Assembly: GCF_016808095.1 (NCBI RefSeq)
Contig: NC_068971.1
Location: 6,646,501-6,710,500 of the forward strand
From: Vigna angularis
Taxonomy: Eukaryota; Streptophyta; Magnoliopsida; Fabales; Fabaceae
Direction: 5' to 3'
DNA: 64,000 bases
Part shown: positions 21,225 through 49,785 of the stretch, piece by piece
Position numbering within the stretch: the first letter of the stretch is position 1
Layout of the letters: every line of letters begins with the position of its first letter
Program-made: the position numbers and the translations under genes
Notes under the pieces: model-generated
What the model saw: only the letters and a program-made list of their open reading frames with translations
Told to the model about the DNA's origin: nothing
The model's database searches: none

Positions 21225-22525
21225 CAAATAATTTTACAATGTTTAGAAAAGAACAGTAAATTTGATATTTTTCATTGAATTGGTGTTAATTACAGAGAAA
21301 GGAATGATGTAGTACACTAACTAAACCTACACCCAATGTCACATGTACATGTTGAAAACTAATTCAAACCGTATCTTTATTTAGTTTCTCTCGTATGTTA
21401 GAGTAAATTTATGACTGATATTCTTTTGGAGAAATTGGAATCAGTGATTCATCCTAGGAAGAGGAAACAAAACATAAAATGTAAAAAGATAATCTGGTTC
21501 AAGTATTTCTGGAAGTGGAGGGTGCGTCATTCACTTGTACAGTTTGAAACTACTTTAAATGATGAACTAATCTGCTTAGATTAAGTTATTTAGGTATTCT
21601 CCACCAAGATATTTATTTTAATTTAATCATCGTCATCATCATATTCATATACTTTTGTTATAATATTTTTATTTCTCTCTTTCACTGTAGGATAAGGTCT
21701 ACACTTTTTTCTTTCTTTCTTTCAATTCACTTATCTCGTCATCAAAAAAAGCTAATATAAAGAAGTTAGTTGCCAATTGTGATTAATTTAATGTTGGAAA
21801 CAACATTTTTCCTGCCTTATGTTCCTGCTACAATATCATATACACGTTATTAATTATAGATGCATGTGAATATTTTAAAAAATATTTTTATAAATTTTTA
21901 AAATAAATATAATAAAATTACAAAAAGAATATAAAATATAATATAAATTAAATTAAATATCAAATAAAATTGAATTTTAATAAAATATAAATAAATTAAT
22001 TGTAATTTTAATTAAAATTAACTTAAAAGAAATAAATTAATTTTTTTTGGATAATATATACTCATTAGGTATGGATAATATGATACATATAATCAACCAA
22101 TTTATAATTAAATAGTAAAATATTTGTTATCGGTTGATAGTAGTAAAATATTGGTTATCTGTTGATAATAAATACTGATTTTGTGTTTCAAATTTTATTC
22201 ACAAATATAAATATTAACATGAATATTTTTTTGTCATTCTAACTTAAGCATTTGGGTTTGGGTCTAATTGGTGCAAGAAATCTTACATGAGATTTATTAC
22301 TTTGCATCAATCACACAAAAGTAAGGTCTACTTTTTTTTTCTCATCACAAAGCACCTTTGATTCAAAAAATAAAGTCCCATTATCTTTCAATTATATTTT
22401 CCACAGTTTGTAATAATTACACATGTCAACATCTTTGGCATTCTACAGACCAAAACTTCTTATAAATGATACGTGATCTGATCAGTTTTTTCAAACTAAG
22501 AAATTTTGATTGAGTTGCATAAACA
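21225..22525 (+). promoter_or_regulatory. Upstream region of the first subtilase gene
   Basis: Bases from about 21400 to 21840 and 22280 to 22525 are similar to the region upstream of the second subtilase (27875-28633), so the promoter was duplicated with the gene. This copy holds an extra AT-rich block of about 400 bp (about 21850-22270). TATAAAT at 22461 lies 65 bp before the ATG, a plausible TATA box. Confidence 0.6.
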
Positions 22526-24838
22526 ATGAGGGAGCCAATGGCTAACTTTGTGATTCCACTTCCTTTCATGCTCTTCATTACTCGTTGGTTTCTGTTGGCT
22601 CATCATGGCAGTGCTGCAGAGACTTCCACATACATAGTACACATGGACAGATCCCTTTTTCCCACTGTCTTTTCAACGCATCATGATTGGTTTGAATCCT
22701 CCGTTCAGTCCATAAAATCAGCAACACCTGGTCACTCATTCAAGCAATCACAGAAACAGATAGTGTATTCCTATAACCATGCCATGTATGGTTTTAGTGC
22801 AGTGCTAACCTCAGAAGAGTTAGAGGCTCTCAAGAACTCTCGTGGTTTTGTTGCAGCTTATCCAGACAGAAATGTCACCATAGACACCACTCACACTTTT
22901 GAGTTTCTCTCCCTAGCCTCTTCCAGTGGCCTCTGGCACGCTTCCAATTTGGGGGAGGATGTCATTGTGGGTGTTATTGACTCTGGTGTGTGGCCTGAGA
23001 GTGAAAGCTTCAAAGATGATGGCATGACCAAGAAAATTCCAAGTAAATGGAAAGGAGCCTGTCAGGAAGGGCAAGACTTCAACTCTTCCATGTGCAACTT
23101 CAAACTGATCGGAGCTAGATATTTCAACAAAGGAGTGATTGCTGCAAAACCCAAGGTTAGAATCACTATGAACTCAGCCAGAGATACAGTGGGTCATGGA
23201 ACTCACACATCTTCCACAGTTGCTGGCAACTACGTCAGTGGAGCCTCTTACTTTGGCTATGCCAAAGGGGTGGCAAGAGGCATTGCACCAAGAGCTAGGC
23301 TTGCCATGTACAAGGTCATTTGGGACGAGGGTCTTTACGCCTCTGATGTTTTGGCTGGAATGGACCAAGCCATTGCTGATGGGGTTGATGTCATTTCCAT
23401 CTCTATTGGGCAGACTGGTGTTCCATTTTATGAAGATCCTGTAGCAATAGCTTCTTTCGCAGCAATGGAAAAAGGGGTGGTGGTTTCATCCTCTGCAGGT
23501 AACCAAGGTCCTGCTCTTGGAACTGTGCACAATGGAACCCCCTGGCTTCTGACTGTGGCTGCCGGAACAGTAGACCGCACATTTGGTTCTCTGACTCTTG
23601 GAAATGGTCAAACCATTATTGGTTGGACCTTGTTTCCCGCAAATGCGTTAGTGGAAAATCTTTCACTTATCTACAATAAGAATACATCAGCCTGTAACTC
23701 AGTGAAGTCGTTATCCAAAGTGGCCATGGAAGGGATCATTTTATGTGACTTGGTGTCAGACCCGGAGTTAGTGATTAAACAAAGGAGGTTTGTTAAAGAA
23801 GCCAGTTTGTTAGGGGCAGTATTTATCTCTGATCAACCATTAGTAAATGAAGAACTTGCCAGCTCTCCAAGTATTGTAATCAGTGCAAAGGACGCACCAT
23901 CTGTGATCAAATATGCAAAAAGCCATAAGAATCCAACAGCCAGTATCAAATTTCAGCAAACATTTGTTGGAATAAAGCCAGCACCAGCTCTTGCTGATTA
24001 CTCTTCAAGAGGTCCTTCACCTAGCTACCCTGGGGTCTTGAAGCCTGACATAATGGCACCTGGCTCTAGTATCCTTGCTGCTTACCCTCCTGATATATCT
24101 GTAGCTGCAATTGGTGACAATGTGTTCTTACCCAGTGACTACAATTTCTTGTCTGGAACATCCATGGCCTGCCCTCATGCTTCTGGTGTTGCTGCTCTTT
24201 TGAAAGCTTCACACCCTGAATGGAGTGCAGCTGCTATAAGGTCTGCACTAGTAACCACAGCTAGCCATCTAGATAATACACAAAATCCAATTAGAGACTA
24301 TGGCTATCCTTCTCAATATGCTTCCCCTCTTGCCATGGGAGCAGGTCAAATTGACCCTAACAAAGCACTTGATCCAGGTTTGATATATGATGCCACCCCA
24401 CAGGACTACGTTAATCTCCTTTGTGCTTTGAATTACACACAAAAACAGATCTTAACCATTACAAGATCAGGTTCCTATAACTGTTCTAAACCATCGTTTG
24501 ATCTTAACTACCCTTCATTCATAGCTCTCTACAGCAACAAAACAAGGTCAGTCGTCCACAAATTTAAGAGGACAGTGACCAATGTTGGTGATGGTGCTGC
24601 CACATACAGAGCCAAGGTGACAGAACCTAAGGGTTCTATGCTGACAGTGTCACCTGAGACATTATCATTCAGATACAAAAATGAGAAGCTAAGCTACAAC
24701 GTGATGATAATGTATAGCAAGTACAAGAAGGAAAATATCTCGTACGGGGATCTTGTTTGGATCGAAGATGGTGGAAAACACACTGTTAGGAGCCCCATTG
24801 TAGTGGCACCAAGTGGAATTGTACGAGCTGTAGTTTGA
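22526..24838 (+). CDS. Subtilisin-like serine protease (SBT1 type, closest recalled SBT1.9), tandem copy 1
   Basis: Intronless, 770 residues, the usual size of plant subtilases, which are secreted to the cell wall space. Order: signal peptide (about 1-31, hydrophobic then ...HGSAAE), I9 propeptide starting STYIVHMD (about 35-118), S8 catalytic domain with Asp152 (VIDSGVWPES), His224 (GHGTHTSS), oxyanion Asn326 (SSAGNQGP) and Ser546 (SGTSMACPHASG), a protease-associated insert between Asn and Ser (about 365-480), and a C-terminal fibronectin-III-like domain from about 665. All catalytic residues are present. Its neighbour at 28634 is a close paralogue in the same orientation. The substrate is unknown. 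Confidence 0.95.
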   Translation: MREPMANFVIPLPFMLFITRWFLLAHHGSAAETSTYIVHMDRSLFPTVFSTHHDWFESSVQSIKSATPGHSFKQSQKQIVYSYNHAMYGFSAVLTSEELEALKNSRGFVAAYPDRNVTIDTTHTFEFLSLASSSGLWHASNLGEDVIVGVIDSGVWPESESFKDDGMTKKIPSKWKGACQEGQDFNSSMCNFKLIGARYFNKGVIAAKPKVRITMNSARDTVGHGTHTSSTVAGNYVSGASYFGYAKGVARGIAPRARLAMYKVIWDEGLYASDVLAGMDQAIADGVDVISISIGQTGVPFYEDPVAIASFAAMEKGVVVSSSAGNQGPALGTVHNGTPWLLTVAAGTVDRTFGSLTLGNGQTIIGWTLFPANALVENLSLIYNKNTSACNSVKSLSKVAMEGIILCDLVSDPELVIKQRRFVKEASLLGAVFISDQPLVNEELASSPSIVISAKDAPSVIKYAKSHKNPTASIKFQQTFVGIKPAPALADYSSRGPSPSYPGVLKPDIMAPGSSILAAYPPDISVAAIGDNVFLPSDYNFLSGTSMACPHASGVAALLKASHPEWSAAAIRSALVTTASHLDNTQNPIRDYGYPSQYASPLAMGAGQIDPNKALDPGLIYDATPQDYVNLLCALNYTQKQILTITRSGSYNCSKPSFDLNYPSFIALYSNKTRSVVHKFKRTVTNVGDGAATYRAKVTEPKGSMLTVSPETLSFRYKNEKLSYNVMIMYSKYKKENISYGDLVWIEDGGKHTVRSPIVVAPSGIVRAVV

Positions 24839-27874: not shown

Positions 27875-28633
27875 AGTAAATTTATGACTAATATGCTGTT
27901 GGAGAAATTGGAATAAGTAATTCATCCTCAGGAAGAGGAAACAAAACACAAATGGTCAAGAAAGAATCTGGTTTAAGTCTTAAAGGAAGAGGAGGCTAAG
28001 TAATTCACTTGTACTATTTGAAACCACTTTAAATAATAAGCTAATCTAGTTAAATTAAGGTTGTTTAGGCATTCTGTACCAAGATGTTTATTTTGATTTA
28101 ATCATCCTTATCACACTCATATAGTTTATTATATATTTTTTTTTTCTCTTTCTTTCACTGCTAGCATAAGGTTTACACTTGTTTCTTTCTTTCTCTTTCA
28201 ATACACTAAACTGGTCATTAAAAAATGCTAATATAAAGAAGTTAGTCGCCAATTGTGTGATTAATTCAATGCTGGAAACAACATATTTCTTGCCTAATGT
28301 TCCTCGTACAATATCATTCTCACACGGTTAAAACACTTTTATGGGCAAGTATACCAAGAGGATTTGTGTCTGATTGCTGGAATAAGGAAATCTTACATGA
28401 GATTTATTACTTTGAATCAGTCAGAAAAGTAAGGTCAATTTTTTTTTTCTCATCACAAAGCACCTTTGATGCAGAAAATTTGGTCCAATTATATTGCAAT
28501 GATATTTTCCACAGCTTGTAATAATTACACGTCAACATCATTGATGTTCTACAGACAGAAAAAATCTTATATATGATGCATGATCTGATCAGTTCTTTCA
28601 AACTAAGAAGTTTTCATTTGAGTTGCATAAACA
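27875..28633 (+). promoter_or_regulatory. Upstream region of the second subtilase gene
   Basis: Similar to 21400-22525, including the shared segments 'GGAGAAATTGGAAT' and 'AAATCTTACATGAGATTTAT'; it lacks the AT-rich block present upstream of copy 1. TATATAT near 28568 lies about 66 bp before the ATG at the same relative place as the TATAAAT of copy 1. Confidence 0.6.
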
Positions 28634-30928
28634 ATGAGGGAGCCCATGGCTAACTTTGTGATTCCACTTCCTTTCATGCTCTTCATTTCTCATTGGTTTC
28701 TGTTGGCTCATCATGGCAGTGCTGCAGAGAGTTCAACATATATAGTCCACATGGACAAATCCCTGTTTCCTCGAGTCTTCACCACCCATCATGATTGGTT
28801 TGAATCCATCATTGATTCCTCTAAATCGGCAACACTTGGTAACTCATCCATACAATCACAGAAAGTGTACTCCTATAGCCAAGCAATGTATGGCTTCAGT
28901 GCAGTTCTAACATCAGAAGAGTTAGAGGCTGTCAAAAGCTCCCTTGGCTTTGTTGCAGCATATCCAGACAGAACTGCCACCATAGACACCACTCACACTT
29001 TTGAGTTTCTCTCCCTAGACTCTTCCAGTGGTCTGTGGCATGCATCAAATTTTGGGGAGGATGTCATTGTGGGTGTTATTGACTCTGGTGTGTGGCCTGA
29101 GAGTGAAAGCTTCAAAGATGATGGCATGACCAAGAAAATTCCAAGTAAATGGAAAGGGACCTGTCAGGAAGGGCAAGACTTCAACACTTCCATGTGCAAC
29201 TTCAAACTGATCGGAGCTAGATATTTCAACAAAGGAGTGATTGCTGGAAACCGCAAGGTTAAAATCAGTATGAACTCAGCTAGAGATACAGAGGGTCATG
29301 GAACTCACACATCTTCCACAGTTGCTGGCAACTATGTCAGTGGAGCCTCTTACTTTGGCTACGCTAAAGGGGTGGCCAGAGGCATTGCACCAAGAGCTAG
29401 GCTTGCCATGTACAAGGTCCTTTGGGAAGAGGGTCGTTACTCCTCTGATGTTTTGGCTGGAATGGACCAAGCCATTGCTGATGGGGTTGATGTCATTTCC
29501 ATCTCTATGGGGTTTGATGGTGTTCCACTTTATGAGGATCCTATAGCAATAGCTTCTTTTGCAGCAATGGAAAAAGGGGTGTTGGTTTCATCCTCTGCAG
29601 GTAATGAAGGTCCTGATCTTGGTACTCTGCACAATGGAATCCCCTGGCTTCTGACCGTGGCTGCAGGTACCATTGACCGCACATTTGGTTCTCTAATTCT
29701 TGGAAATGGCCAAACCATTATTGGATGGACCTTGTTTCCTGCAAACGCGGTAGTGGATGACTTTCCACTTATCTACAATAAGAATACATCAGCCTGTAAC
29801 TCAGTGAAGTCGTTATCCGAAGTGGCCATGGAAGGGATCATTGTATGTGACCCAGTTTCAGACCCTGAGTTAGTGTTTGAACAAAGGAGGTTTGTCAGAG
29901 AAGCCAGCTTGTTAGGGGCAGTATTTATCTCTGATCAACCTTTAGTAAATGAAGGACATGCCAGATCTCCAAGTATTGTAATCAGTGCAAAGGATGCACC
30001 ATCTGTGATCAAATATGCAAAAAGCCATAAGAATCCAACAGCCAGTATCAAATTTCAGCAAACATTTGTTGGAATAAAGCCAGCACCGGCTCTTGCCGAT
30101 TACTCTTCAAGAGGTCCTTCACCTAGCTACCCTGGGGTCTTGAAGCCCGACATAATGGCACCTGGCTCTAATGTCCTTGCTGCTTTCATTCCTGATACTC
30201 CAGCAGCTGCAATTGGCAACAATGTGTACTTACCTACTGACTACAATTTGCTGTCTGGGACATCCATGGCCTGTCCTCATGCTTCTGGTGTTGCTGCTCT
30301 TCTGAAAGCTGCACACCCTGAATGGAGTGCTGCTGCTATAAGGTCTGCACTAGTAACCACAGCTAGCCATCTAGATAATACACAAAATCCAATTAGAGAC
30401 TATGGCTATCCTTCTCAATATGCTTCCCCTCTAGACATGGGAGCAGGTCAAATTGACCCTAACAAAGCACTTGATCCAGGTTTGATATATGATGCCACCC
30501 CACAAGACTATGTTAATCTCCTTTGTGCTTTGAATTACACACAAAAACAGATCTTAACCATTACAAGATCAGGTTTCTATAATTGTGCTAAACCATCGTT
30601 TGATCTTAACTATCCTTCATTCATAGCTCTCTACAGCAACAAAACAAGGTCAGTCGTCCACAAATTTAAGAGGACAGTGACCAATGTTGGAGGTGGTCCT
30701 GCCATATACAGAGCCAAGGTGACAGAGCCTAAGGGTTCTGTGTTGACAGTGTCACCTGAGACATTATCATTCAGATACAAAAATGAGAAGCTAAGCTACA
30801 ATGTGCTGATAAAATATAGCAAGTACAAGAAGGAAAATATCTCGTATGGGGATCTTGTTTGGATCGAAGATGGTGGAACACACACTGTTAGGAGCCCCAT
30901 TGTAGTGGCACCAACTGGAATTGTATGA
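28634..30928 (+). CDS. Subtilisin-like serine protease (SBT1 type), tandem copy 2
   Basis: Intronless, 764 residues, same architecture as copy 1: signal peptide, I9 propeptide (STYIVHMDKSLFP), Asp150, His222, Asn324, Ser544, protease-associated insert, fibronectin-III-like tail. All catalytic residues are intact, so it should be an active secreted protease. It ends ...APTGIV: a CGA-to-TGA difference relative to copy 1 removes the last four residues, RAVV. Differences from copy 1 are concentrated in the propeptide and early catalytic domain, while the stretch around residues 460-700 is almost identical. Confidence 0.95.
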   Translation: MREPMANFVIPLPFMLFISHWFLLAHHGSAAESSTYIVHMDKSLFPRVFTTHHDWFESIIDSSKSATLGNSSIQSQKVYSYSQAMYGFSAVLTSEELEAVKSSLGFVAAYPDRTATIDTTHTFEFLSLDSSSGLWHASNFGEDVIVGVIDSGVWPESESFKDDGMTKKIPSKWKGTCQEGQDFNTSMCNFKLIGARYFNKGVIAGNRKVKISMNSARDTEGHGTHTSSTVAGNYVSGASYFGYAKGVARGIAPRARLAMYKVLWEEGRYSSDVLAGMDQAIADGVDVISISMGFDGVPLYEDPIAIASFAAMEKGVLVSSSAGNEGPDLGTLHNGIPWLLTVAAGTIDRTFGSLILGNGQTIIGWTLFPANAVVDDFPLIYNKNTSACNSVKSLSEVAMEGIIVCDPVSDPELVFEQRRFVREASLLGAVFISDQPLVNEGHARSPSIVISAKDAPSVIKYAKSHKNPTASIKFQQTFVGIKPAPALADYSSRGPSPSYPGVLKPDIMAPGSNVLAAFIPDTPAAAIGNNVYLPTDYNLLSGTSMACPHASGVAALLKAAHPEWSAAAIRSALVTTASHLDNTQNPIRDYGYPSQYASPLDMGAGQIDPNKALDPGLIYDATPQDYVNLLCALNYTQKQILTITRSGFYNCAKPSFDLNYPSFIALYSNKTRSVVHKFKRTVTNVGGGPAIYRAKVTEPKGSVLTVSPETLSFRYKNEKLSYNVLIKYSKYKKENISYGDLVWIEDGGTHTVRSPIVVAPTGIV

Positions 30929-35116: not shown

Positions 35117-37320
35117 CTAAAGTCCTGTTGTAGATGGTTGGGTTTGAGGTTCCTGACTTGGTCCTGTACTTGGCTGGGTTTGTGGTGCCTGACTTGGTCC
35201 TGAAGTTGGCTGGGTTTCAAGTTGTTGACTTGCTTCACATTGGTTTGTTGGATGACGTTGTGGGCATGTATTTCTTTTGTGACCAAGTTGTCTGCATATG
35301 GAACATCTCTTACGAGTTCCATTTTGCTTTAGCTGTGTCTCATCCTTCTTTAGTTCCCAAGCCTCTAGCCTTCTCTTCTTTTTTGCTCTACCAGGTAAAG
35401 TCCTTTTAGGTGGGGGCAAAACATCAGGCTGAGAAGTCATTTCCCATAGTTGATGACCGTTGACAGGGTATATGATTGAGATGTATGTTTCTTGGTATGT
35501 TGACCTTCTAAACCAATTTGGGACGTAGTCTTCTCCATTGATGTTTAAAAAATTCATTGTAGCTAATGCATGACAGCATGACATGCCTGTTAAAGTCCAC
35601 TTTCTGCAAGTACAGTCCAATTGGTCTATGTCAACCACATACTTCTCACCAATCATTAAAGTGTGTCTCACCTCAAAAATTTTCTCTCCTGACCAACTGC
35701 AATGACAACTAATTTAAATAAGTATCTATAGAAACAAAAATTATAACATCAACATTAAATCCAAATTCTTATGTGCAGATGTTCACATACCTAGGTAGCC
35801 AAAATTGAGTCATGTGGAATTCCTTTTGAAATCTTTTTTTTATCTTTGGGCAAAGATGACCTTCAAATGTAGTTATTTTCTGTCTATTTGTTGACCATCT
35901 CTTCATGAGATATAAACGAATGTCTTCCATCATTGTAATGATGGGCTTACCTCTTGCATGTAATATGACACTGTTAAAAGCTTCAAACATATTATTCACT
36001 AAGGTGTCACAAACAGCTCTACCTGTAAACCTTGAATGTGACCAAAATCTAATTACACAAAAAAACAGTTACATATAATCAGCTAGGCAAACAAACAAGA
36101 AGAATGGATTTAAATATATGTTACCTTGGTGGAATTGCTAGCAAGTGTTTAAATGCATCTGGATTGACATCTTTAATGTCTCTCATCACTGCCTCCCATG
36201 CTGTAGGGTGTGTTGATGATGCTGCCTTCCATAATAGACGTCTTAGAATTTGGCGAGGAAATTTCTTCCTAAAATTTGTATAAATGTGACGAACACAAAA
36301 TCTTTACTCCACACCAGGGAGAAGTTCTTGTAATGCTGGCAGAAGTCCCTATCAAAGTTCCAAACATGAAGTTATACAAGGTATAATACAAAACAAGAAG
36401 GTGTGAAAGATATATAACAACATTGGGCTACGTTACTTACTTTTTGTTGATCTGAAATATATGTGTTAGTTGAACAAAGCTCTACACCACCAAGATCATC
36501 AATGAGTAATTGTAAAAACCAATGCCAACTGTCCTTATTCTCCACTTCAACAACAACATATGCCAAAGGACACATTTGGTCATTCCCATCTCTTGCAACT
36601 GCAGTTAACAACTCACCTCCATATTTTCCTTTTAAGAAACAACCATCTAAACCTATAATAGGCCTACAAGACACAAAGCTGTCTTTGCAGGCCTTGAAAC
36701 ACACATACATTCCAGAACATCTACATCAGCCACTGCCTCTACTTCAATTTCTACCTCACCTTCTACCAGAACATCTACACCAGCCACTGCCTCTACTTCA
36801 ACTTCTACCTCACCTTCTACCTCACCTTCTACTTCTACTTCAGCCTCTACCTCAGGCTCTACATTACCTACTGCTTGAACCTCTGGTATACCAACCTCCA
36901 TCTCAACATCCAATTCAACACTCTCTCTGTCAACTTCTGCTTCACCACTAGGTGCCACAATTTCTAGTTGAGAAGAGTATTCCAACTCCAGAATATACTG
37001 AGGCTTACACACCTTGTGTATAACATAAACGTGACCTTGACCATTCAACATAGCAATATTCACTACATGACATGCACCTTTGTCATCTAATAAAGGTTCT
37101 AAACAATCTTCTAACACAGGACCACGACCCAATGAATACCACAACTCCTTTACATTCCTATAACCCATCTCCTTAAGAATGTTTAATATTTCAAAATAAC
37201 TCCATCGATCTGGATCAATTTTTAAAGTTGTGGTTTGACCATAGTGGTATATGAATGTCCCATTATTCTCAGATTTCCCCGCATGGTGAAACACAATTTC
37301 AACGTCTGAGTTGGCTATCT
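35117..37320 (-). pseudogene. MuDR-type transposase, internally deleted and with a stop codon
   Basis: Segments, 5' to 3' on the minus strand: an N-terminal domain (about 37320-36960, GKSENNGTFIYHYG, EILNILKEMGYRNVKELWY); an acidic Glu-Val-rich repeat (about 36960-36720); MULE catalytic segment (36710-36441, CRPIIGLDGCFLKGKYGGEL, DSWHWFLQLL); an exon at about 36350-36130 with RFCVRHIYTNFRKKFPR; one at about 36045-35793 with RFTGRAVCDTLVNNMFEAFN; and the last, 35700-35117, with a SWIM zinc finger (CTCRKW...SCCHA) and a CCHC knuckle (CSICRQLGHKRNTC). Splice sites are visible between the later exons. Defects: the region normally between the acidic part and the MULE domain is missing with a frame change, and TAA at 36306-36304 interrupts GVE-RFC. 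So it is not expected to be active. Confidence 0.88.
36720..36865 (-). repeat. Imperfect coding repeat (Glu-Val-rich)
   Basis: Units such as 'CCTCTACTTCAACTTCTACC' recur, encoding an EVEVE/VEGEVE-type acidic stretch and a repeated DVLVE/DVLEC block in the transposase remnant. Confidence 0.75.
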
Positions 37321-39640: not shown

Positions 39641-41599
39641 CTAGAAGGATGTGGAGTCTTGTTCTGAGCAAAGTGGCATCCTTTCGTCTGTGCATTCTTC
39701 AACTATGTCAGTAGTTGGGTATTCATCATCATGTTTGATCTGTAAGGAATTTTGAACCTTTCTCAATGCTTCTAATTCCAGTGAAACCTCCTTCATTGTT
39801 GGCCTTTTCCTCCCATTAAGTCTCAAGCATCTCATTGCAAGGTTTCCAATGGCAAAAATGTCATCTTTCATTGCCTCCTTAGCCACCATTCCATCTAAAA
39901 TTTCATTAACTTGGTTCTCCTTCAGAGAAAGAAACTCTGCAATCAGATTTTGACCCTCATCTTCCTCTAAGAATGAAATTGGCTTTCTCCCACTTATGAG
40001 CTCTACCAGCACTACCCCTACACATCACTTTTATCTGAAAACTTTCCAGACTGAAAATATTCAGGGTCAATGTACCCAAAAGTTCCTCCTACAGCTGTGG
40101 TCAAGTGAGTCTTATCTTGTGGCACTGATCTTGATGTTGGGGGAGTTTCGACACACACATAGAACTCCACACATGATAAGATATTGTCTGCTTTGGGCCA
40201 AGCCCTCACGGATTTGTTTTTGGTACTACTCCAAAAGGCCTTTTGTCATTGGAGATATCTATGTGTATATAAACCCTTGACCAGTCCTTATTTCACTCAA
40301 TGTGTGACTTTGTTTGCACTCCAACACTTGATGTTCCAAAATCAGACACCTTGGCACTGAAGTTGCTGTCTAAAAGTATGTTGGTAGGTTTAATGTCTCT
40401 ATGGAAAATGGGAATTGAAGCTGCAAAATGCATATATGCCACTGCTCCAGCAACCTCACATGCAATTCTAAGGCGACTCTCCCATGAAAGGGAGGGCTCA
40501 TTGTCTCTCCTGTGGATATGGTGAGAGAGTGTTCCATTTGGAATGAATTCATAGACTAGTAAAGGAGTTTCTGTCTCAAGACAACAACCTAATAGTTTGA
40601 CAATGTTCCTGTGGTTGATCTGTGATAGAATCACCACTTCATTCACAAAAGTCTCTATCTGGTTCCTTTCAATTTCTTTGGACCTTTTAACTGCAACTAT
40701 GGTTCCATCAGGTAACATTCCTTTGTACACTGTGCCATAGCCACCCTGACCAACAAACCTACTGCTGTTGTAGTTATCTGTGGCTCTTTGTAGCTCCTCG
40801 CCTGTAAAAAGCTTTGCCATTTCTCCATTTCCGTAAGATGAGAGCTTCTCTTGTAACAAGTAGCCACCATTTTTCCTGAAAAGGTTTTCCTTTCGGATAC
40901 TTTCTCTCCTTTTCTGTATGTACTGATATGATTTGTATCCCAGAAGAAACAAACACAGAAAGCCTAAACCAAGTCCAACACCTGCAAATTCCCAAGTTTT
41001 TCATTAGGGTGGCAGAATAAACTTGCAAAGATACTCCTTTTTTTTTTTTGTAACATTGACTAATTAACAAGTTGGAAGTTCAAGGTTAAAATTAAATATT
41101 GGTTCTGTGATACATATCGACCAAACCTTATCTGGTCAAGTTATTCAGAAATATAACCAAAATACTGTATATAATTGGAGGCAATTTTTCACCCTATTAT
41201 GAATTAGTTTTAGTTTTTATGATTGAGTTAAGCTCAAATCTTGATTTTAGGTTGACATTAAATCTTTAAGTATTCTTACTCTATTGAATTGATGCTACTT
41301 GATGATAATAAGTCTATCTTAAATAATTGTCTATTATGTCTTTACATTGAGTATTGAGTAGTACATGGGTAGGCAATGCTTACAGGGTTGTCATAGGGAG
41401 ATTTGGACCTGAAAACTAAGAAGGAAGTGCATGAATCTTGAAGGCCATTGCAAAGATATCCTTTTGCTACAGAAGGGTCATTAGAGCAGTCATAGACAGT
41501 GTTGTTGAGGTATACTTGTTGGCAATTTTGTGAATGAGGGAACAAATATAGGAACAGGATTGTGATGAGAATATTGAGCTTGTGAAGCTCCATGAACAA
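39641..41599 (-). pseudogene. LysM-WAK receptor kinase, pseudogene copy A
   Basis: Same two-exon plan as the copies at 42832 and 47171, but broken three ways. (1) Exon 1 keeps only the signal peptide and first LysM start (41599 to about 41365, CQQVYLNNTVYDCS...SPYDNPVSIAY), then runs into unrelated sequence; about 200 residues of ectodomain are gone. (2) In exon 2 (40981-39641) a 192-bp solo LTR splits KVSDFGTS from RSVPQDK. (3) Seven bases are missing at the DVYSFGVV site (about 40019), shifting the frame and creating stops. The TM ([19 protein letters not shown]), P-loop ([12 protein letters not shown]), HRDIKPTN and C-terminal lobe remain readable. Confidence 0.92.
40135..40326. mobile_element. 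Solo LTR (192 bp) inside the kinase exon
   Basis: TGTTGGGGGAG...CTCCAACA, with inverted TGTTGG/CCAACA ends, flanked by the exact 5-bp direct repeat CTTGA (40130-40134, 40327-40331). It holds a TATATAAACCC TATA-like sequence near 40267. The intact paralogues lack it, so excision of 192 + 5 bp restores alignment. Its small size suggests a TRIM-type or other short-LTR element; superfamily not assigned. Confidence 0.9.
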
Positions 41600-42831
41600 G
41601 TCTTCAGGGAATACCTCAGATGAGTTATAAAAATATCAGTGGAAAGTTGTGTTAATTGCGGTCATTTATAAACTACAATGATGCTGAAAGGCTTACGTAT
41701 GAAGAGAACTAGAAAATGGTATCTACTCTCTTAAGTTCTTCATATTTGGTTGAGAACTAGAAAAAAGTTATCTCAATTAGAAATATTGTCTAAATAATGT
41801 TGATAAGATTTTGATTGTTCTGATTTTACAAGTCATGTGATATTGATTTGCATCTTACATTCAACTTTTCAGAAAACATCAAATATATTAGTTATTATTT
41901 GTGAGAGAAAAAAGCATAAAAGCATAAATATGAGAAGAAAAGATATGAATGAATTTAACAAGATAGAAAATATGGACTGTAGATTAAACAAAATTCAATA
42001 TAATTTTGAAAATGAATCTTGTTGTAAAAATTTAACCATATAATAAAATTTATATAGTTGATTATTGTATGTTGATACAATGAAATGATATAACAAAATA
42101 TTTTTGTTAAACTTTTTAATAAAATAATCTCAAATTTTTAATTATATTGTTTATGTTTCGTTTAAACTTAACCATATTAATTTCTATTTTTTCAATCTAT
42201 TATGTTATTTTCCGTTACACGAAGTGGAAGAAATGTTAAAATGTTCTGACTTTTTAAGTTTTAAACTACTTTTAAGAAGTTTTTTGTGAAGAAAAATACA
42301 AAATATCCAATTTGATGAAAAGCACAGCAGTTGAAAAGACTTCCCAAGATTGACACGAGGAGAAGAAGATTCAATTGGTATGACTAATTTGATAGGATGA
42401 CAAATTGAAAATTGTTAGTTCTATTTTTCGATTTGTTTTAAGTATGATTTAAAGATTGTAGATAGATGCAAAAAAAATTATCTTTTTAAAACTTTTATAA
42501 AAATTAATTAATTTTTGTTTTTATTTTATCTTTATTTATTTTTACATCACAGGAGTCGTCCCATCATACATTGGTGAAGTTTCTAAGAGCCAGAGATGTC
42601 TATTTTGTTCATCATAAAAAGGAAACTAAGACAAAGATGAACACAGACCATCATAACACATCTACCACTAACAAAGATAACAAGCATATTAGCTCAATTC
42701 AGAAGCATAACGTTTTAGTTATGATAATAATATTAAATATGAAAGTATTCATACTGTCATTTAATACTGAAAGGTGAAAATGAAATACTGAAGCATAGTT
42801 AACAAAGAATACAAAACAAAATTTCTGACTT
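41600..42831. other. Intergenic DNA between copies A and B
   Basis: AT-rich; includes the presumed promoter of copy A (right of 41600, minus strand) and the 3' flank of copy B. No further features recognised. Confidence 0.45.
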
Positions 42832-45047
42832 CTAAAAGGATGTGGAGTCCAGTTCTGAGAACAGTGGCATGCTTTCATCTGTGATTTCTTGAACTGTCTC
42901 GCTAGTTGTATACTCCTGATCATGGTTGATCTCTAAGGAACTTTGCAGCTTTCTCAATGCTTCTAATTCCAATGAAACCTCTTTCATTGTTGGTCTTTTC
43001 TTCCCATTAAGTCTCAAGCATCTCATTGCAAGGTTTGCAATTGCAAGAATCTCATCTTTCCTTGCTTCCTTAACAACCCTGCCATCTAAAATCTCATAAA
43101 CTTTGTTCTCCTTCATCACAGAAAGAAACTCTGCAATCAGATTCTGACCCTCATCTTCCTCTAAGAAGGAAATTGGCTTTCTCCCACTTATAAGTTCTAC
43201 CAGCACTACCCCAAAACTGTACACATCACTTTTATCTGAAAACTGACTAGACTGAAAATATTCAGGGTCTATGTACCCAAAAGTTCCTCCTACAGCTGTG
43301 GTCAAGTGAGTCTTATCTTGTGGCACTGATCTTGATGTTCCAAAATCAGACACTTTGGCACTGAAGTTGCTGTCTAAAAGTATGTTGGTAGGTTTGATGT
43401 CTCTATGGAAAATGGGAACAGAAGCTGCAAAATGCATATATGCCACTGCTCCAGCAACCTCACATGCAATTCTAAGGCGACTCTCCCATGAAAGGGAGGG
43501 CTCATTGTCTCTCCTGTGGATATGGTGAGAGAGTGTTCTATTGGGAATGAATTCATAGACTAGTAAAGGAGTTTCTGTCTCAAGACAACAGCCAAAGAGT
43601 TTGACAATGTTCCTGTGGTTGATCTGTGATAGAATCACCACTTCATTCACAAAAGTCTCTATCTGGTTCCTTTCAATCTCTTTTGACTTTTTAACAGCAA
43701 CAATGGTTCCATCTGGTAGCATTCCTTTATACACAGTGCCAAAGCCACCCTGACCAAGAAATCTACTTCTGTTATAGTTATCTGTTGCTTTCTGTAGCTC
43801 CTCGGCTCTAAACAGCTTTGCCATTTCTCCTTTCCCATAATAAGAGAGCTTCTCTTGTAACAAGTAGCCACCATTTTTCCTGAAAAGGTTTTCCTTTCGG
43901 ATACTTTCTCTCTTCTTCTGTATATACTGATATGATTTGTATCCCAGAAGAAACAAACACAGAAAGCCTACACCAAGTCCAACACCTGCAAATACACAAA
44001 CAAGGACAAAATTTTTAAGCAACTACCAAAATCATCTCTATAATTGCTCTATCAAAAAGAAAATAATTATTGGCAATCTGTAAACCATGTTTTACCTCAT
44101 TAAATTGCATCAGCTACATACTACGGCCATGCTAAAAACCAAAATTCAAACAAAACTAGATTTAATTCTATTTACGGTTCAGAAAAAATACCTAAGGAAG
44201 CAACCAATTTGGTAGGAAAACTTTCAGCATCAGATTCATTACATTGGAACCCCATGAAGGTTCCATTCGCAACCGTTCCCTGGGAGCAAGTACAATAGAA
44301 ACTGTCAGGGTCCTCTTTGCAACTCTTCCCTCTGAGAGGAACCAAGATAGGAGTTGTGGCATAGATGATTATGATGTTGTCTGCAGTTGACGGCACTGAC
44401 AACCCGTTGGCCTCTAGCATACTTTGTTCGTCAACACCATAAGCCTCTCCAATGGACTTAACAGTATCACCATTTTTCACTGAGTAAACCAGCAAGGAAG
44501 TGACCCCTCTTGCTGTCTGATTTTCAGTGGGACAAGCACATACTACTGGAACTGTGAGCTCAGCACCAACTGTAATGCCATCAGAGGCATAGTAATTCTG
44601 ACCCATCAGGGCCTGGCAGGTGGTGAGGCCTTGGTAAATTTCTGTAACCAACTTGAAGTAGGTGTCATTCTTGGTGGCAGTGTAAGGTGTGATATGCTGG
44701 TAGATATTTCCAGAACATGAACAGAATACAGGAACAATGATTGACTTATTGGAAGGAATCTTATCATCTTTTGAGATGTTGTTTATTGAGGCTATGGTAG
44801 ATGCTTCAGAGCCAAAAAGGTAGGCAATGCTTACAGGGTTGTCATAGGGAGATTTGGACCTGAAAACTAAGAAGGAAGTGCATGACTTTTGAAGGCCATT
44901 GCAGAGGTATCCTTTTGGTGCAGAAGGGTTCTCAGAGCAGTCATAGACAGTGCTGTTGAGGTATGCTTGCTGAGAGTTAGCAGATTCAGGAAACATCTGT
45001 AAGAACAGAATTATGCAGAGAATGTAAATGTAAGGATGAAACTCCAT
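42832..45047 (-). CDS. LysM ectodomain / WAK-type kinase receptor, intact copy B
   Basis: Exon 1 45047-44192 and exon 2 43985-42832 (206-bp GT-AG intron, phase 1) encode 669 residues. Exon 1: signal peptide (MEFHPYIYILCIILFLQMFP), then a cysteine-rich region with three LysM-like units and the paired CxC motifs of LysM receptors (CSCSG, CACP); LysM3 contains YSVKNGDTVKSIGEAYGVDE and ends TPILVPL. Exon 2: TM (about 287-300, [14 protein letters not shown]), then a kinase with GQGGFGTVYKG, Lys384 (VAVKK), HRDIKPTN with Asp481, SDFGTSRS with Asp499, and [11 protein letters not shown]. These wordings are WAK/WAKL, not LYK. It is an RD kinase with all catalytic residues. Chitin- or Nod-factor-like glycan binding is inferred from LysM only. 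An in-frame ATG at 45113 exists; 45047 aligns with the paralogue's signal peptide. Confidence 0.92.
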
Positions 45048-47170
45048 GAACCTATTGTCTCTGGAGAAGACAAAGTAAATTTGGTAGTGCTGTTTAAGAT
45101 CTAATGCATTCATGATACCGTGTTGTGCTTTCTTATTTTATGGAAAATTTGTTATTACTTTTTTAGCGGTAGAGACATGCTTCATAGGATCTCGGATTCA
45201 TAGACAAAATAAACGATTTGAATCATTCAACGTTGAAGAAACAATTATAACATGGTGTGAGTTAGTGTTGATCCCTCTAAATAAAGTCAATAATCAGACA
45301 CTTTGAGTAACAAAATTTTGTTTCTCCTGAGCACTTTGACTTTTCAATGGCTGCCTTGGTCATGCATTTGAAAATCATCAAAGTAGCCAAATGCATAGGT
45401 TGTCGGAATGTAAAACTAGATCAGTATCATGTAACAGAACCAAACTGGTTGTTAAACCTTGAATTCGTGTTAAATAGTTTGGCTATAATAGAATTATAAT
45501 CCTAATTTTTTAAACAATAACTAAAACTATACACTTTACATTTTAGAAAAATCAAATCTATAAGAACAGTTAATTTTATCAATCAGTTTTTGCATGCTTG
45601 CAAAGTTTGATGTTATTATAGTTGACTTTTTATTTGGGCATAGATGTCATATAACCATCACCTTTAAATTTAATTTTAGATTATCTATTGCGTTGAAATG
45701 TTAATCTTCCTTATCTGGGTTCTAACTAATTATGAGATATCGTTTACGAAAATGACAACACTGGTCTCATGATGTGTACTCATTCGTGTTAGAATGTTTG
45801 CTTTAGGCATTTTTTTTTTCTTATATCAAGAAAGGTCCAAACACGCAAGTGTATTTTGTCTTATAGCAGATAGAGTATAGAAGACCCGTTTTTGTAACTA
45901 AGAAAAACAAAGGATAGAAAAAAGAAGATAGAAACAAGTTAACATCTATTACTATTTGTTTTGTTTTAGGTGTTGGGTCGAAATGTTCACTTAAAATAAT
46001 GTTTCTATCACTTATTCTTTGGCTATCATCATCCTATTGGCATATTTTGTTCTCCAATTAATTGGATGTACATACTAAAGATATTATGATGTTTACTGAG
46101 TCATTAAGCAATTGATGTTGTAATAAATGTGTTGTAAAAAGTTTCAACTAGTATATTTTTAACCTATTTTTAGTTTTATCTATAAGCTTTTGACTAAAGT
46201 CGATCTAATTGTACCATCGATTATGACATTTGATTGATTCGTGATTGATTCGTACTAGTCGACACATATAGTACACTATTAAAAAAATATTTTTACCAAT
46301 TTTCTTTTGAAATTTTTTTCCAAGAAAATACTTATAAATTTTGTTATGAATAATAATTTATAAAAATTGTTTTTAGTTATTGTACAAAATATTATGCATA
46401 AAACATCTTTTACAGAAAATTTTGTAAATAATACTTACAAATTTTATAATTTTATAATTTTATAAATAATTATTCATGAAGGAATTATATGTCATGAAAT
46501 AAAAAAAAAAAGTTTTTTCTTATAAAATTTTATAACAAATTTGTAAGAAAAATTTCATGGAATATGAAACTTTTTAGAAGATCAGTTATTGATATTTTTA
46601 TTAATTTAAATTTTATTAATTATGTGTTTGATTTTGTCAAATTTCTCAACCCTTTATTTATTTGAATCAATATTGAGAGCACATTTTATCCACTAAAATA
46701 TATCCCTAGAGGAATCAAATCGTCATATTGTATATCTTTGAAATTTTCAACATGCTTTATGTTGCATGTTTCAAGCTTTGACTTTGAAATTTTTCTATCG
46801 CTCAACGTGCTTCATCCTTCAATTTTTGCAGCTTCAATTATGGAAATCTCAATTTTTAATAGGCTCTTTTCTTTTCCATATAGTAATACGTTAAAAAATT
46901 AAAATTATAAAATATATAACATGTTCATTAGTTTATTATAGCCCATTCCAAAAGGCCACTTCAACGAGGCAACAACAAAGTGGAGAAGTATGAATGAGGA
47001 TTTGTCTATTATGAACTATGAGTATTTCCAAGTTTCAACTGATGTTCTTGTGGAGAAATGCAGACTTTGTTATCCACACATGTCAGTAAAAGAAAACATG
47101 AAACACTAGTTAAGAAAAAAGGGGGTATCTGGCTTCCTACAACAACACTATAAAGAGAAAATCCAGCTTC
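45048..47170. other. Intergenic DNA between copies B and C
   Basis: Holds the presumed promoter of copy B just right of 45047 and the 3' flank of copy C. The rest is AT-rich with T/A runs; no coding sequence or transposon ends recognised. Confidence 0.45.
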
Positions 47171-49785
47171 CTATAAGGATGTAGACTCTAGTTGTAAGGA
47201 CAGTGACATGCTTTCCTCTGTGCACTCTTGAATAATATCACTAGTTTTGTGCTCATGATCATGTTTGATCTGTAAGGAACTTTGCACCTTTCTCAATGCT
47301 TCTAGTTCCAGTGAAACCTCCTTCATGGTTGGCCTTTTCCTCCCATTAAGTCTCAAGCATCTCATTGCAAGGTTTGCAATGGCTAGAATGTCATCTTTCA
47401 TTGCTTCCTTAGCCACCCTTCCATCTAAAATTTCATAAACTTGGTTCTCCTTCATCAGAGAAAGAAACTGTGCTATCAGATTCTGACCCTCATCTTCCTC
47501 TAAGAAGGAAATTGGCTTTCTCCCACTTATGAGCTCTACCAGCACTACCCCAAAACTGTACACATCACTTTTATCTGAAAACTTACTAGACTGAAAATAC
47601 TCAGGGTCAATGTACCCAAAAGTTCCTCCCACAGCTGTGGTCAAGTGAGTCTTATCTTGTGGCACTGATCTTGATGTTCCAAAGTCAGACACCTTGGCAC
47701 TGAAGTTGTTGTCTAAAAGTATGTTGGTAGGTTTGATGTCTCTATGGAAAATGGGAACAGAAGCTGCAAAATGCATATATGCCACTGCTCCAGCAACCTC
47801 ACATGCAATTCTAAGGCGACTCTCCCATGAAAGGGAGGGCTCATTGTCTCTCCTGTGGATATGGTGAGAGAGTGTTCCATTTGGAATGAATTCATAGACT
47901 AGTAAAGGAGTTTCTGTCTCAAGACAACAACCTAATAGTTTGACAATGTTCCTGTGGTTGATCTGTGATAGAATCACCACTTCATTCACAAAAGTCTCTA
48001 TCTGGTTCCTTTCAATTTCTTTGGACCTTTTAACTGCAACTATGGTTCCATCAGGTAACATTCCTTTGTACACTGTGCCATAGCCACCCTGACCAAGAAA
48101 CCTACTCCTGTTATAGCTATCTGTTGCTCTTTGTAGCTCCTCAGATGTAAAAAGCTTTGCCATTTCTCCATTTCCGTAAGATGAGAGCTTCTCTTGTAAC
48201 AAGTAGCCACCATTTTGCCTGAAAAGGTTTTCCTTTCGGATACTTTCTCTCTTCTTCTGTATATACTGATATGATTTGTATCCCAGAAGAAACAAACACA
48301 GAAAGCCTACACCAAGTCCTGCTCCTGTAAATTAAAAGAAAAACTAAAACTCATTCAAAATGAAAGCAAAGGCTTACAAGTTGCAAGTTCAAGTAAGTGA
48401 AAATTAAATTTTGGCCAGTTGTCATTAGAGACCATTTTGGGTCTGCTTGATTTCTTTGTAACTATGTTATTTTGAAAGCTGTTTCCTAAGACAATTTCAC
48501 ACAACTTAGCAATTAAATTAACTTCTCCTAAAATATCTATTAAGATTTAATTTTTTTTTCCAATATATGCCTTTTAGGAACCACAAACTACAAACAGTTT
48601 AGGACGTTTTTTCATCCTATTCTATTTTCTTCAAATGCTCTAATCAAGTGTTCAAGGGATAAACATTTCGAAACAGAGAAATGTGCTTAAGAAAAACACT
48701 TTCAAATGTGCTCAGGGAACGAAAAAATGTTAGAAAACAGAAAGCTATTTTTAAAACAATAAATACAAGTTCTTACTGCACTCTATTGCTCTTACTCTTC
48801 TAGGATGATACATAGCACATAAGGGGTGTAATCTCCAAACAACAGCTATATGCTATTCTAAAATCCAAAGCCAAAGTTTCAATGAAAGCATATTATGATT
48901 CTTCTTGAAGAGGGTTTAAACAAAAGTACCTAAAGCGGCTACCAACTTGGCAGGGAATTTCTGACCATCAGACTCATCACAGAAGGGCCCCTTAGAGCTT
49001 CCATCCGGTGCTTGATAACATTTGCAATAGAATTTATCTGGGTTCTCTTTGCAGCTCTTCCCTATTAGAGGAACTAAAAGAGGTGTCAAGGAAAGGAGAT
49101 CCGTGTTTATGTTTTCACTTTGTGGCACAGCCAACTCATTGGCCTCAAGCATTCTTTGTTCATCCACACCATAAGCCTTTCCTATGGATTCAATAGTGTC
49201 ACCATAGTTCACCAAGTAAACCAACAAGGAGGTGACCCCTATTGCTGTCTGATTTACAGTTGGACAAGCACATAACAAGGGAACTGTGAGCTCAGCACCA
49301 ATTGCAATTTTGGTTGCTGCATAGTAATTCTGACCCATCATTGATTGACAGGTAGTGAGACCTTGGAAGGTTTCTGTTACCAACTGATAATAGGTGTCAT
49401 TCTTGCTGGCAGTGTAAGGTGTGTTGTGCTGGTAGATGTTTCCTGAACATGAACAGAAAACAGGAACAATGATTGTCTTGTTAGAAGCAATCTTGTCATT
49501 TCTTGAGATGTTGTTGATTGAGGCTATGGTAGATGCCTCAGAGCCAAGAAGGTAGGCAATTCTGACAGGGCTATCATAGGGAGGTTTGGACCTGAAAAGT
49601 AAGAAGGAAGTGCATGACTTTCGAAGGCCATTGCAAAGGTAGCCTTTTGGTGCAGAAGGGTTGTCAGAACAGTCATAGACAGTGTCATTGAGGTATGCTT
49701 GTTGGCACTTGAGTGAGTGAGGGAACATGCATAGGAGCATAACTGTGGTGAGAATGTTGAGGTTGTGAAGAAGCTCCATGAACAA
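47171..49785 (-). CDS. LysM ectodomain / WAK-type kinase receptor, intact copy C
   Basis: Exon 1 49785-48930 and exon 2 48324-47171 (605-bp GT-AG intron, phase 1), 669 residues. Exon lengths (856 and 1154 nt) are identical to copy B. Signal peptide MFMELLHNLNILTTVMLLCM, then CQQAYLNDTVYDCSDNPSAP, CSCSG and CACP pairs and three LysM-like units (the third with VNYGDTIESIGKAYGVDE). The TM begins after [19 protein letters not shown]. The kinase has [11 protein letters not shown], Lys384, HRDIKPTN (Asp481), SDFGTSRS (Asp499), [11 protein letters not shown] and DVYSFGVVLVELISGRKPI. The kinase is intact and RD-type. The alternative ATG at 49779 would trim two residues. Same orientation as A and B, so the cluster arose by tandem duplication. 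Confidence 0.93.

What the first reader, a model, noticed from the sequence alone, without database searches (positions are those of the whole stretch)
39641..49785. Tandem array of chimeric receptors: LysM ectodomain fused to a WAK-type kinase
Canonical LysM receptor kinases carry LYK-type kinase domains, and WAKs carry GUB_WAK/EGF ectodomains. Here three neighbouring genes pair a three-LysM CxC ectodomain exon with a TM+kinase exon whose wording is WAK/WAKL ([24 protein letters not shown]...[16 protein letters not shown]). The phase-1 intron lies exactly between ectodomain and TM, and two copies have identical exon lengths, intact frames and complete catalytic residues, so the fusion is real and conserved rather than an annotation join. 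Exon shuffling could have wired glycan sensing to a WAK output. I cannot tell whether this class is already described.
Basis: partly seen in the sequence, partly recalled or inferred. Interest (0 to 1): 0.88.

Follow-up and report, generated by a model that had tools for sequence, protein, structure and literature searches.

The report
Known LysM–WAK fusion receptor genes
Two intact bean genes and one broken copy encode a cell-surface receptor that joins a chitin-type sugar sensor to a wall-associated-kinase engine; this class of natural hybrid is already described, though its age, the exact join and its spread to a parasitic plant look less well known.

Summary
The chimera is real and already described. 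Two intact tandem genes (49779–47171 and 45047–42832, minus strand; window closest to Vigna angularis) each encode three LysMs, a TM and a kinase in two exons with a phase-1 GT–AG intron. The third copy (41593–39641) is a relic. A kinase tree puts the kinases inside WAKs, away from LYR and CERK1; the ectodomain is LYR/LYK4-5-like and its model best matches the chitin receptor CHIP13. This is Group III / LysM-III, also called LYRIV (MtLYR5, MtLYR6, LjLYS20/21, PpLYR5), whose chimeric origin was proposed by Arrighi et al. 2006 (via PMC6625017, PMC6207691). Added here: (i) the exon-1 segment between LysM3 and TM looks like a decayed WAK EGF half-module, so the join probably lies inside exon 1, not at the intron; (ii) members occur in Nepenthes, Bertholletia and Liquidambar, although print says rosids only; (iii) broomrape (Orobanche) members nest inside Rosales, which indicates horizontal transfer; (iv) the two kinase exons share a gene-conversion-like tract. 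Function is inferred. New members of a known kind.

The parts
48930..49779 (-). Gene A exon 1 (850 bp): probable signal peptide (about aa 1-25, by eye), three LysMs, cysteine tail
   Evidence: AF2 model of the exon, mean pLDDT 80.7
49447..49617 (-). Gene A LysM1 (aa 55-111)
   Evidence: Pfam PF23446, E 2.1e-21
49276..49434 (-). Gene A LysM2 (aa 116-168)
   Evidence: Pfam PF23472, E 6.4e-18
49066..49227 (-). Gene A LysM3 (aa 185-238)
   Evidence: Pfam PF23473, E 1.3e-14
48931..49059 (-). Gene A tail between LysM3 and TM (aa 241-283), Cys 243/252/254/267: probable decayed WAK EGF half-module
48325..48929 (-). Gene A intron (605 bp, GT-AG, phase 1)
47171..48324 (-). Gene A exon 2 (1154 bp with stop): TM, juxtamembrane, kinase
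47300..48154 (-). Gene A kinase domain (aa 341-625), WAK type, catalytic motifs present
44192..45047 (-). Gene B exon 1 (856 bp): probable signal peptide, three LysMs, cysteine tail
43986..44191 (-). Gene B intron (206 bp, GT-AG, phase 1)
42832..43985 (-). Gene B exon 2 (1154 bp with stop): TM and WAK-type kinase
41348..41593 (-). Relic C, start of exon 1 only (residues 1-82 of V. umbellata P0009, 89% identical)
39641..40981 (-). Relic C, exon 2 with an insertion and two small deletions; frame broken
40135..40326 (-). Insert in relic C: 192 bp, TG...CA ends, 5-bp direct repeat on both sides (197 bp in all); solo-LTR-like
   Evidence: and the sequence

Best explanation
A tandem cluster of Group III (LysM-III, = LYRIV) LysM receptor kinases in a Vigna: two intact genes and one relic. 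Shown: an LYR/LYK4-5-type three-LysM ectodomain, joined through a short cysteine tail that resembles the last WAK EGF to a WAK-type TM and a kinase with the catalytic motifs, in two exons. Inferred: the LysM triplet replaced most of a WAK ectodomain before the rosids arose, the join falling between LysM3 and the last EGF half of a WAK and keeping the WAK intron. Inferred mechanism: the LysMs bind a chitin-type oligosaccharide, as the nearest solved structure, CHIP13, does; unlike LYRs, which lack the catalytic motifs, this receptor can itself phosphorylate through a WAK-type RD kinase. Near-identical kinases with diverged ectodomains suggest copies with one shared output and different ligand preferences, kept alike in part by gene conversion.
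For: Two-exon structure and frames. LysM and kinase Pfam hits. Kinase tree: 30 LysM-WAK rows one clade 99/92, with 22 WAK-kinase rows 100/99, 13 LYRs and CERK1 on the other side 100/95. Ectodomain: with LYRs against the two LYRI rows 100/100; PDB scores CHIP13 167 bits, CERK1 ectodomain 50; Foldseek best matches CHIP13, also with chitooctaose (TMt 0.87-0.91, 42-43% id), then MtLYR4. Four catalytic motifs: 107 of 111 LysM-WAK, 19 of 21 WAK, 0 of 13 LYR. Cysteine tail CxC..C in 74 of 84 LysM-WAK and 0 of 12 LYR; tail HMM hits 8 of 21 WAKs above the best of 420 shuffles and 0 of 13 LYR; reverse HMM hits 65 of 109 LysM-WAK above the best of 109 shuffles and 0 of 13 LYR. dN/dS A-B 0.13 in the kinase, 0.34 in the LysMs. 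Published class: passages in PMC6625017, PMC6207691, PMC7487666. A pear member, PbrWAKL1, rises after fungal infection.
Against: No transcript or binding data for these genes. The strict EGF pattern (PROSITE PS01186, recalled) fits only 4 of 84 tails, and 27 of 111 proteins could not be scored. 13 of 21 WAKs are not hit by the tail HMM above shuffles, and the reverse HMM rests on 5 WAK sequences. The Liquidambar model P0131 lacks the tail. In the ectodomain tree the LysM-WAK/LYR split has no support (35/0) and no LYK ectodomain was included. The tail of the AF2 model is of low confidence. Ligand identity is by resemblance only.
Confidence: 0.85

Rival explanations
1. The join was made by exon shuffling exactly at the phase-1 intron: all of exon 1 is LysM-derived and all of exon 2 is WAK-derived; the cysteine tail arose by itself.
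For: The intron sits between the cysteine tail and the TM. The strict EGF pattern fits only 4 of 84 tails; the Liquidambar model has no tail.
Against: Tail and WAK last-EGF profiles find each other above shuffles while the 13 LYRs do not score; the two LYRs read by eye have a Pro/Ser-rich linker there (P0133, P0134).
Confidence: 0.15
2. Two separate neighbouring genes (a LysM receptor-like protein and a kinase) joined by annotation.
For: Both exon-1 frames run only a few codons past the donor before a stop, so a truncated form is conceivable. The V. angularis record P0121 chains the exons differently.
Against: Splice sites and phase fit in both copies; 111 of 164 proteins sorted carry the same order; exon 2 brings no ectodomain of its own.
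Confidence: 0.03
3. The receptor no longer senses chitin-type glycans; it acts on another ligand or only as a partner or regulator.
For: LysM dN/dS (0.34) is higher than kinase dN/dS (0.13); no binding data appeared in the searches made.
Against: Fold and 42-43% identity to CHIP13 solved with chitooctaose; invariant CxC and LysM columns in 48 aligned sequences; a pear member is induced by a fungus.
Confidence: 0.3

Closest known systems
Group III / LysM-III LysM-RLKs, = LYRIV (MtLYR5, MtLYR6, LjLYS20, LjLYS21, PpLYR5); WAKL group of Rosaceae LYPs
   Same: Three LysMs with CxC, two exons, kinase with conserved residues related to WAK, chimeric origin already proposed
   Different: Nothing essential found; these are further members, two intact and one relic, in a Vigna
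LYR / LYK4-5 (LYRIII) receptors, e.g. Lotus CHIP13, MtLYR4
   Same: Ectodomain fold and sequence
   Different: LYR kinases lack the catalytic motifs (0 of 13 here) and the cysteine tail before the TM (0 of 12)
WAK / WAK-like kinases
   Same: TM, juxtamembrane, kinase, and probably the last half EGF
   Different: No GUB_WAK domain on exon 1 by Pfam at E 0.1; LysMs instead
LYK / CERK1-type receptors
   Same: LysM ectodomain with an active-type kinase
   Different: Kinase of another clade (CERK1 the only LYK row); two exons against ten or more

Membership tests
Group III / LYRIV LysM-RLK | Three LysMs with the CxC between LysM1 and LysM2 | tested here: met
   Pfam; CSC at residues 109-111 in A and B, the position given for LjLYS20
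Group III / LYRIV LysM-RLK | Two exons | tested here: met
   Frames and splice sites; no transcript seen
Group III / LYRIV LysM-RLK | Kinase with conserved catalytic residues, unlike other LysM-RLK kinases, related to WAK | tested here: met
Group III / LYRIV LysM-RLK | Ectodomain closest to Group II (LYR) | tested here: met
   With LYRs against LYRI 100/100 (no LYK ectodomain in that tree); PDB scores CHIP13 167 bits, CERK1 50; Foldseek
Group III / LYRIV LysM-RLK | Clade with the named members LjLYS20/21, MtLYR5/6 | tested here: inconclusive
   Groups with Lotus P0020 ('LysM type receptor kinase', 678 aa) among legumes; its LYS number was not verified
LYK (CERK1/NFR1 type) | LYK-type kinase | tested here: not met
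   On the other side of a 100/95 branch from CERK1 (one LYK row only)
LYR (LYRIII) | Kinase without the catalytic motifs | tested here: not met
   Motifs present
Canonical WAK | GUB_WAK and EGF ectodomain | tested here: not met
   No such Pfam hit on exon 1 at E 0.1; only a decayed EGF half by profile
Chitin/LCO receptor | Binds its glycan | not testable with these tools
   Resemblance to CHIP13 only

The most novel reading that the evidence does not exclude
The LysM-WAK chimera is older than published (it predates the rosids, with members in Caryophyllales, Ericales and Saxifragales), was made by a join inside an exon that kept the last half EGF and the intron of a WAK, and was later captured by broomrapes (Orobanche) from a Rosales plant, giving a root parasite a host-derived glycan receptor with an active-type kinase.
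Probability: 0.55. Interest if true: 0.55.

Novelty: new member of a known kind. Interest (0 to 1): 0.33.

Why it matters
It shows a natural rewiring of glycan sensing from the LYK/LYR signalling pair to a WAK-type kinase, in a class for which the papers searched gave few functional data. The tandem set (near-identical kinases, diverged ectodomains, one relic with an intact sister-species copy) is a tractable system for testing what the WAK output adds. The class itself is not new.

Tried and rejected
Considered and rejected: LYK/LYR kinase origin; annotation join; three working genes.

Papers: 10 of 10 searches used. The term 'LysM-WAK' gave no paper; two searches gave nothing useful; two searches were seen as listings only. 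No functional study of LYR5/6 or LYS20/21 appeared in the listings. Passages (find) were seen in PMC6207691, PMC7487666, PMC10834447, PMC12184373, PMC6625017, PMC7536700 and PMC6039847; no paper was read in full. Arrighi 2006 and Lohmann 2010 are not held and are cited through the papers that quote them. That no paper reports the non-rosid members, the Orobanche transfer or the EGF remnant rests on these searches only.

Limits. The three protein searches were capped: searches list the best 120 each of 6746 and 7899 hits, one search lists all 86; so absence from other taxa is not shown. 19 partial or odd proteins (Macadamia P0155 among them) were dropped from the 164 before the group counts. 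The kinase tree uses 30 of the 111 LysM-WAK proteins, 22 WAK-kinase rows (21 WAKs and P0155), 13 LYR rows (12 of 13 fetched LYRs and one PDB chain), one LYK, FERONIA and BAK1, and it warns that long branches meet. The ectodomain tree uses 30 LysM-WAK, 12 of 13 LYRs, P0155 (counted with the LYRs), two LYR and two LYRI PDB chains; its bootstrap had not fully settled. The full-length tree (42 rows) was rooted by hand on Nepenthes. For one search a TM was found in 11 of 21 WAKs, some of these placements are plainly wrong, and 5 segments with CxC..C made the profile. In one search two of the three best WAK hits (P0159, P0161, both Rhododendron) have nearly the same EGF and are not independent. P0155 was among the test sequences and does not appear among the 45 best hits.
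Full report
What is there. On the minus strand lie two complete two-exon genes. Gene A: exon 1 49779-48930 (850 bp), intron 605 bp, exon 2 48324-47171 (1154 bp), 667 aa. Gene B: exon 1 45047-44192 (856 bp), intron 206 bp, exon 2 43985-42832 (1154 bp), 669 aa. Both introns are GT-AG and phase 1; a donor one base away gives 26 stops in A and 23 in B. Exon 1 carries a hydrophobic start (by eye), three LysMs and five N-glycosylation sequons in A, seven in B. Exon 2 carries the TM, a juxtamembrane stretch and a kinase with the G-loop, VAVK, HRDIK and DFG.

The third copy is a relic. Matched piecewise to the V. umbellata protein P0009, its counterpart by sequence (96-98% identical in two kinase stretches), it keeps residues 1-82 of the ectodomain, lacks the rest, and its kinase exon has a 197-bp insertion and two small deletions. 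The insert (192 bp with TG...CA ends between 5-bp direct repeats) looks like a solo LTR; no other convincing match was found in the window (next best E 0.12).

Source. P0001 (V. umbellata) differs from gene A at 2 of 667 residues. A V. angularis protein (P0121, named 'Cell division protein', plainly a mis-chained model) contains 172-aa and 204-aa stretches identical to A and B. The window is V. angularis or very near it.

Kinase. In a 68-row tree 30 LysM-WAK kinases form one clade (99/92) nested among 22 WAK-kinase rows (all 52 together 100/99), while 13 LYRs and CERK1 lie on the other side (100/95). Long branches (BAK1, FERONIA, CERK1) are flagged there. phmmer scores of the gene-A kinase against the 148 proteins then loaded separate as well: full LysM-WAK kinases 430-629 bits, 14 WAKs 287-412, 13 LYRs 114-161; cut-off kinases fall in between or lower. 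In the PDB, FERONIA (217 bits) and BAK1 (210) come before CERK1 (175).

Ectodomain. In 47 rows it groups with LYRs against LYS11 and NFP (100/100), but the split between LysM-WAK and LYR is unresolved (35/0) and no LYK ectodomain was included. In the PDB, CHIP13 scores 167 bits and the CERK1 ectodomain 50. The AF2 model of exon 1 (mean pLDDT 80.7, low in the tail) best matches Lotus CHIP13, also solved with chitooctaose (TMt 0.87-0.91, 42-43% identity), then MtLYR4.

Where the join lies. Between LysM3 and the TM the family has a cysteine tail, CxC...C, in 74 of 84 proteins with a locatable LysM3 end (27 of 111 not locatable); none of 12 LYRs has it (1 not locatable); the strict EGF pattern fits only 4 of 84. 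A profile of 72 such tails finds 8 of 21 WAKs above the best of 420 shuffled sequences (top 20.3 bits, E 1.1e-5), in five of the eight (P0159, P0072, P0071, P0091, P0154) with a hydrophobic stretch right after it by eye, and none of 13 LYRs. In reverse, a profile of 5 WAK pre-TM segments finds 65 of 109 LysM-WAK segments above the best of 109 shuffles and none of 13 LYRs. Against this: 13 of 21 WAKs and 44 of 109 LysM-WAKs do not exceed the shuffles, and the Liquidambar model lacks the tail. On balance the WAK part probably begins inside exon 1. The intron is then a WAK intron, and shuffling at that intron is not needed. That WAK genes have an intron there is recalled, not tested.

Evolution within the array. 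A-B dS is 0.49 in exon 1 and 0.195 in exon 2; dN/dS is 0.34 in the LysMs and 0.13 in the kinase. Exon 2 has a 168-bp identical run that none of 10000 permutations of the differences reached (third positions alone: 29 of 10000). This fits gene conversion of the kinase core; locally strong constraint is the other reading.

Known or new. PMC6625017 (passages): Group III LysM-RLKs have two exons and classical kinase residues; Arrighi et al. and Lohmann et al. proposed a fusion; 117 putative members, rosids only. PMC6207691 (passages): LYRIV, in legumes and peach among eight species, kinases 'closely related' to WAK. PMC7487666 (passages): a WAKL group in Rosaceae, PbrWAKL1 raised after Botryosphaeria infection. 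The finding therefore belongs to a described class.

Wider distribution. Searches list LysM-WAKs in Nepenthes (Caryophyllales), Bertholletia (Ericales) and Orobanche (Lamiales), and one in Liquidambar (Saxifragales; a 569-aa model, shortened at the C-terminus and without the tail) (taxonomy). In the 42-row full-length tree Nepenthes, Bertholletia and Liquidambar fall outside the 38-row set of rosids plus Orobanche (100/99), the tree being rooted by hand on Nepenthes. The kinase tree, rooted on other kinases, gives the same order with weak support (86/76 to 93/36). O. minor and O. gracilis sit inside Rosales, with Trema and Morus in the full-length tree (100/100) and with Morus and Parasponia in the kinase tree (100/93); the ectodomain tree leaves them unresolved. 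Holding Orobanche with Bertholletia costs 185 log units (p-AU 1.5e-36); holding Rosales together without Orobanche costs 105 (p-AU 7.9e-10). The groups for these tests were chosen after seeing the tree. Two species whose proteins are 89% identical, on contigs of 56 and 110 Mb, speak against contamination. Transfer of the Nepenthes or Bertholletia genes is not excluded either.

Function (inferred). The receptor pairs a ligand head of the chitin-binding LYR kind with a kinase that has the catalytic motifs (107 of 111 family members; 0 of 13 LYRs). It could therefore signal without an LYK partner, into whatever WAK-type kinases phosphorylate. No binding or genetic data were found.

Noticed in passing
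Proteins P0118 (Orobanche minor) and P0160 (O. gracilis): LysM-WAK receptors of two broomrapes nest inside Rosales (100/100); trees that keep them out of Rosales or join them to Bertholletia are rejected by AU tests. Candidate host-to-parasite gene transfer.
   Followed up: partly
Protein P0155 (Macadamia integrifolia): One 913-aa model holds a LysM triplet, GUB_WAK and WAK domains and a WAK-type kinase: an intermediate-like architecture or a chained gene model.
   Followed up: partly
window 42832-43985 and 47171-48324: 168-bp identical run and locally very low dS between the two kinase exons: gene-conversion-like tract.
   Followed up: yes
window 40135-40326: 192-bp TG...CA insert with 5-bp direct repeats in relic C, solo-LTR-like.
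   Followed up: partly
Protein P0121 (Vigna angularis): Public record named 'Cell division protein' contains ectodomain stretches identical to genes A and B: a mis-chained gene model.
   Followed up: yes
window 22523-24838 and 28631-30928: Two single-frame subtilases (Peptidase_S8, I9, fn3_6), a second tandem pair.
   Followed up: no
window 35117-37318: Minus-strand frames, one with a SWIM zinc finger (35117-35713) and one with a repetitive acidic stretch; transposase-like (MULE type by recall).
   Followed up: no
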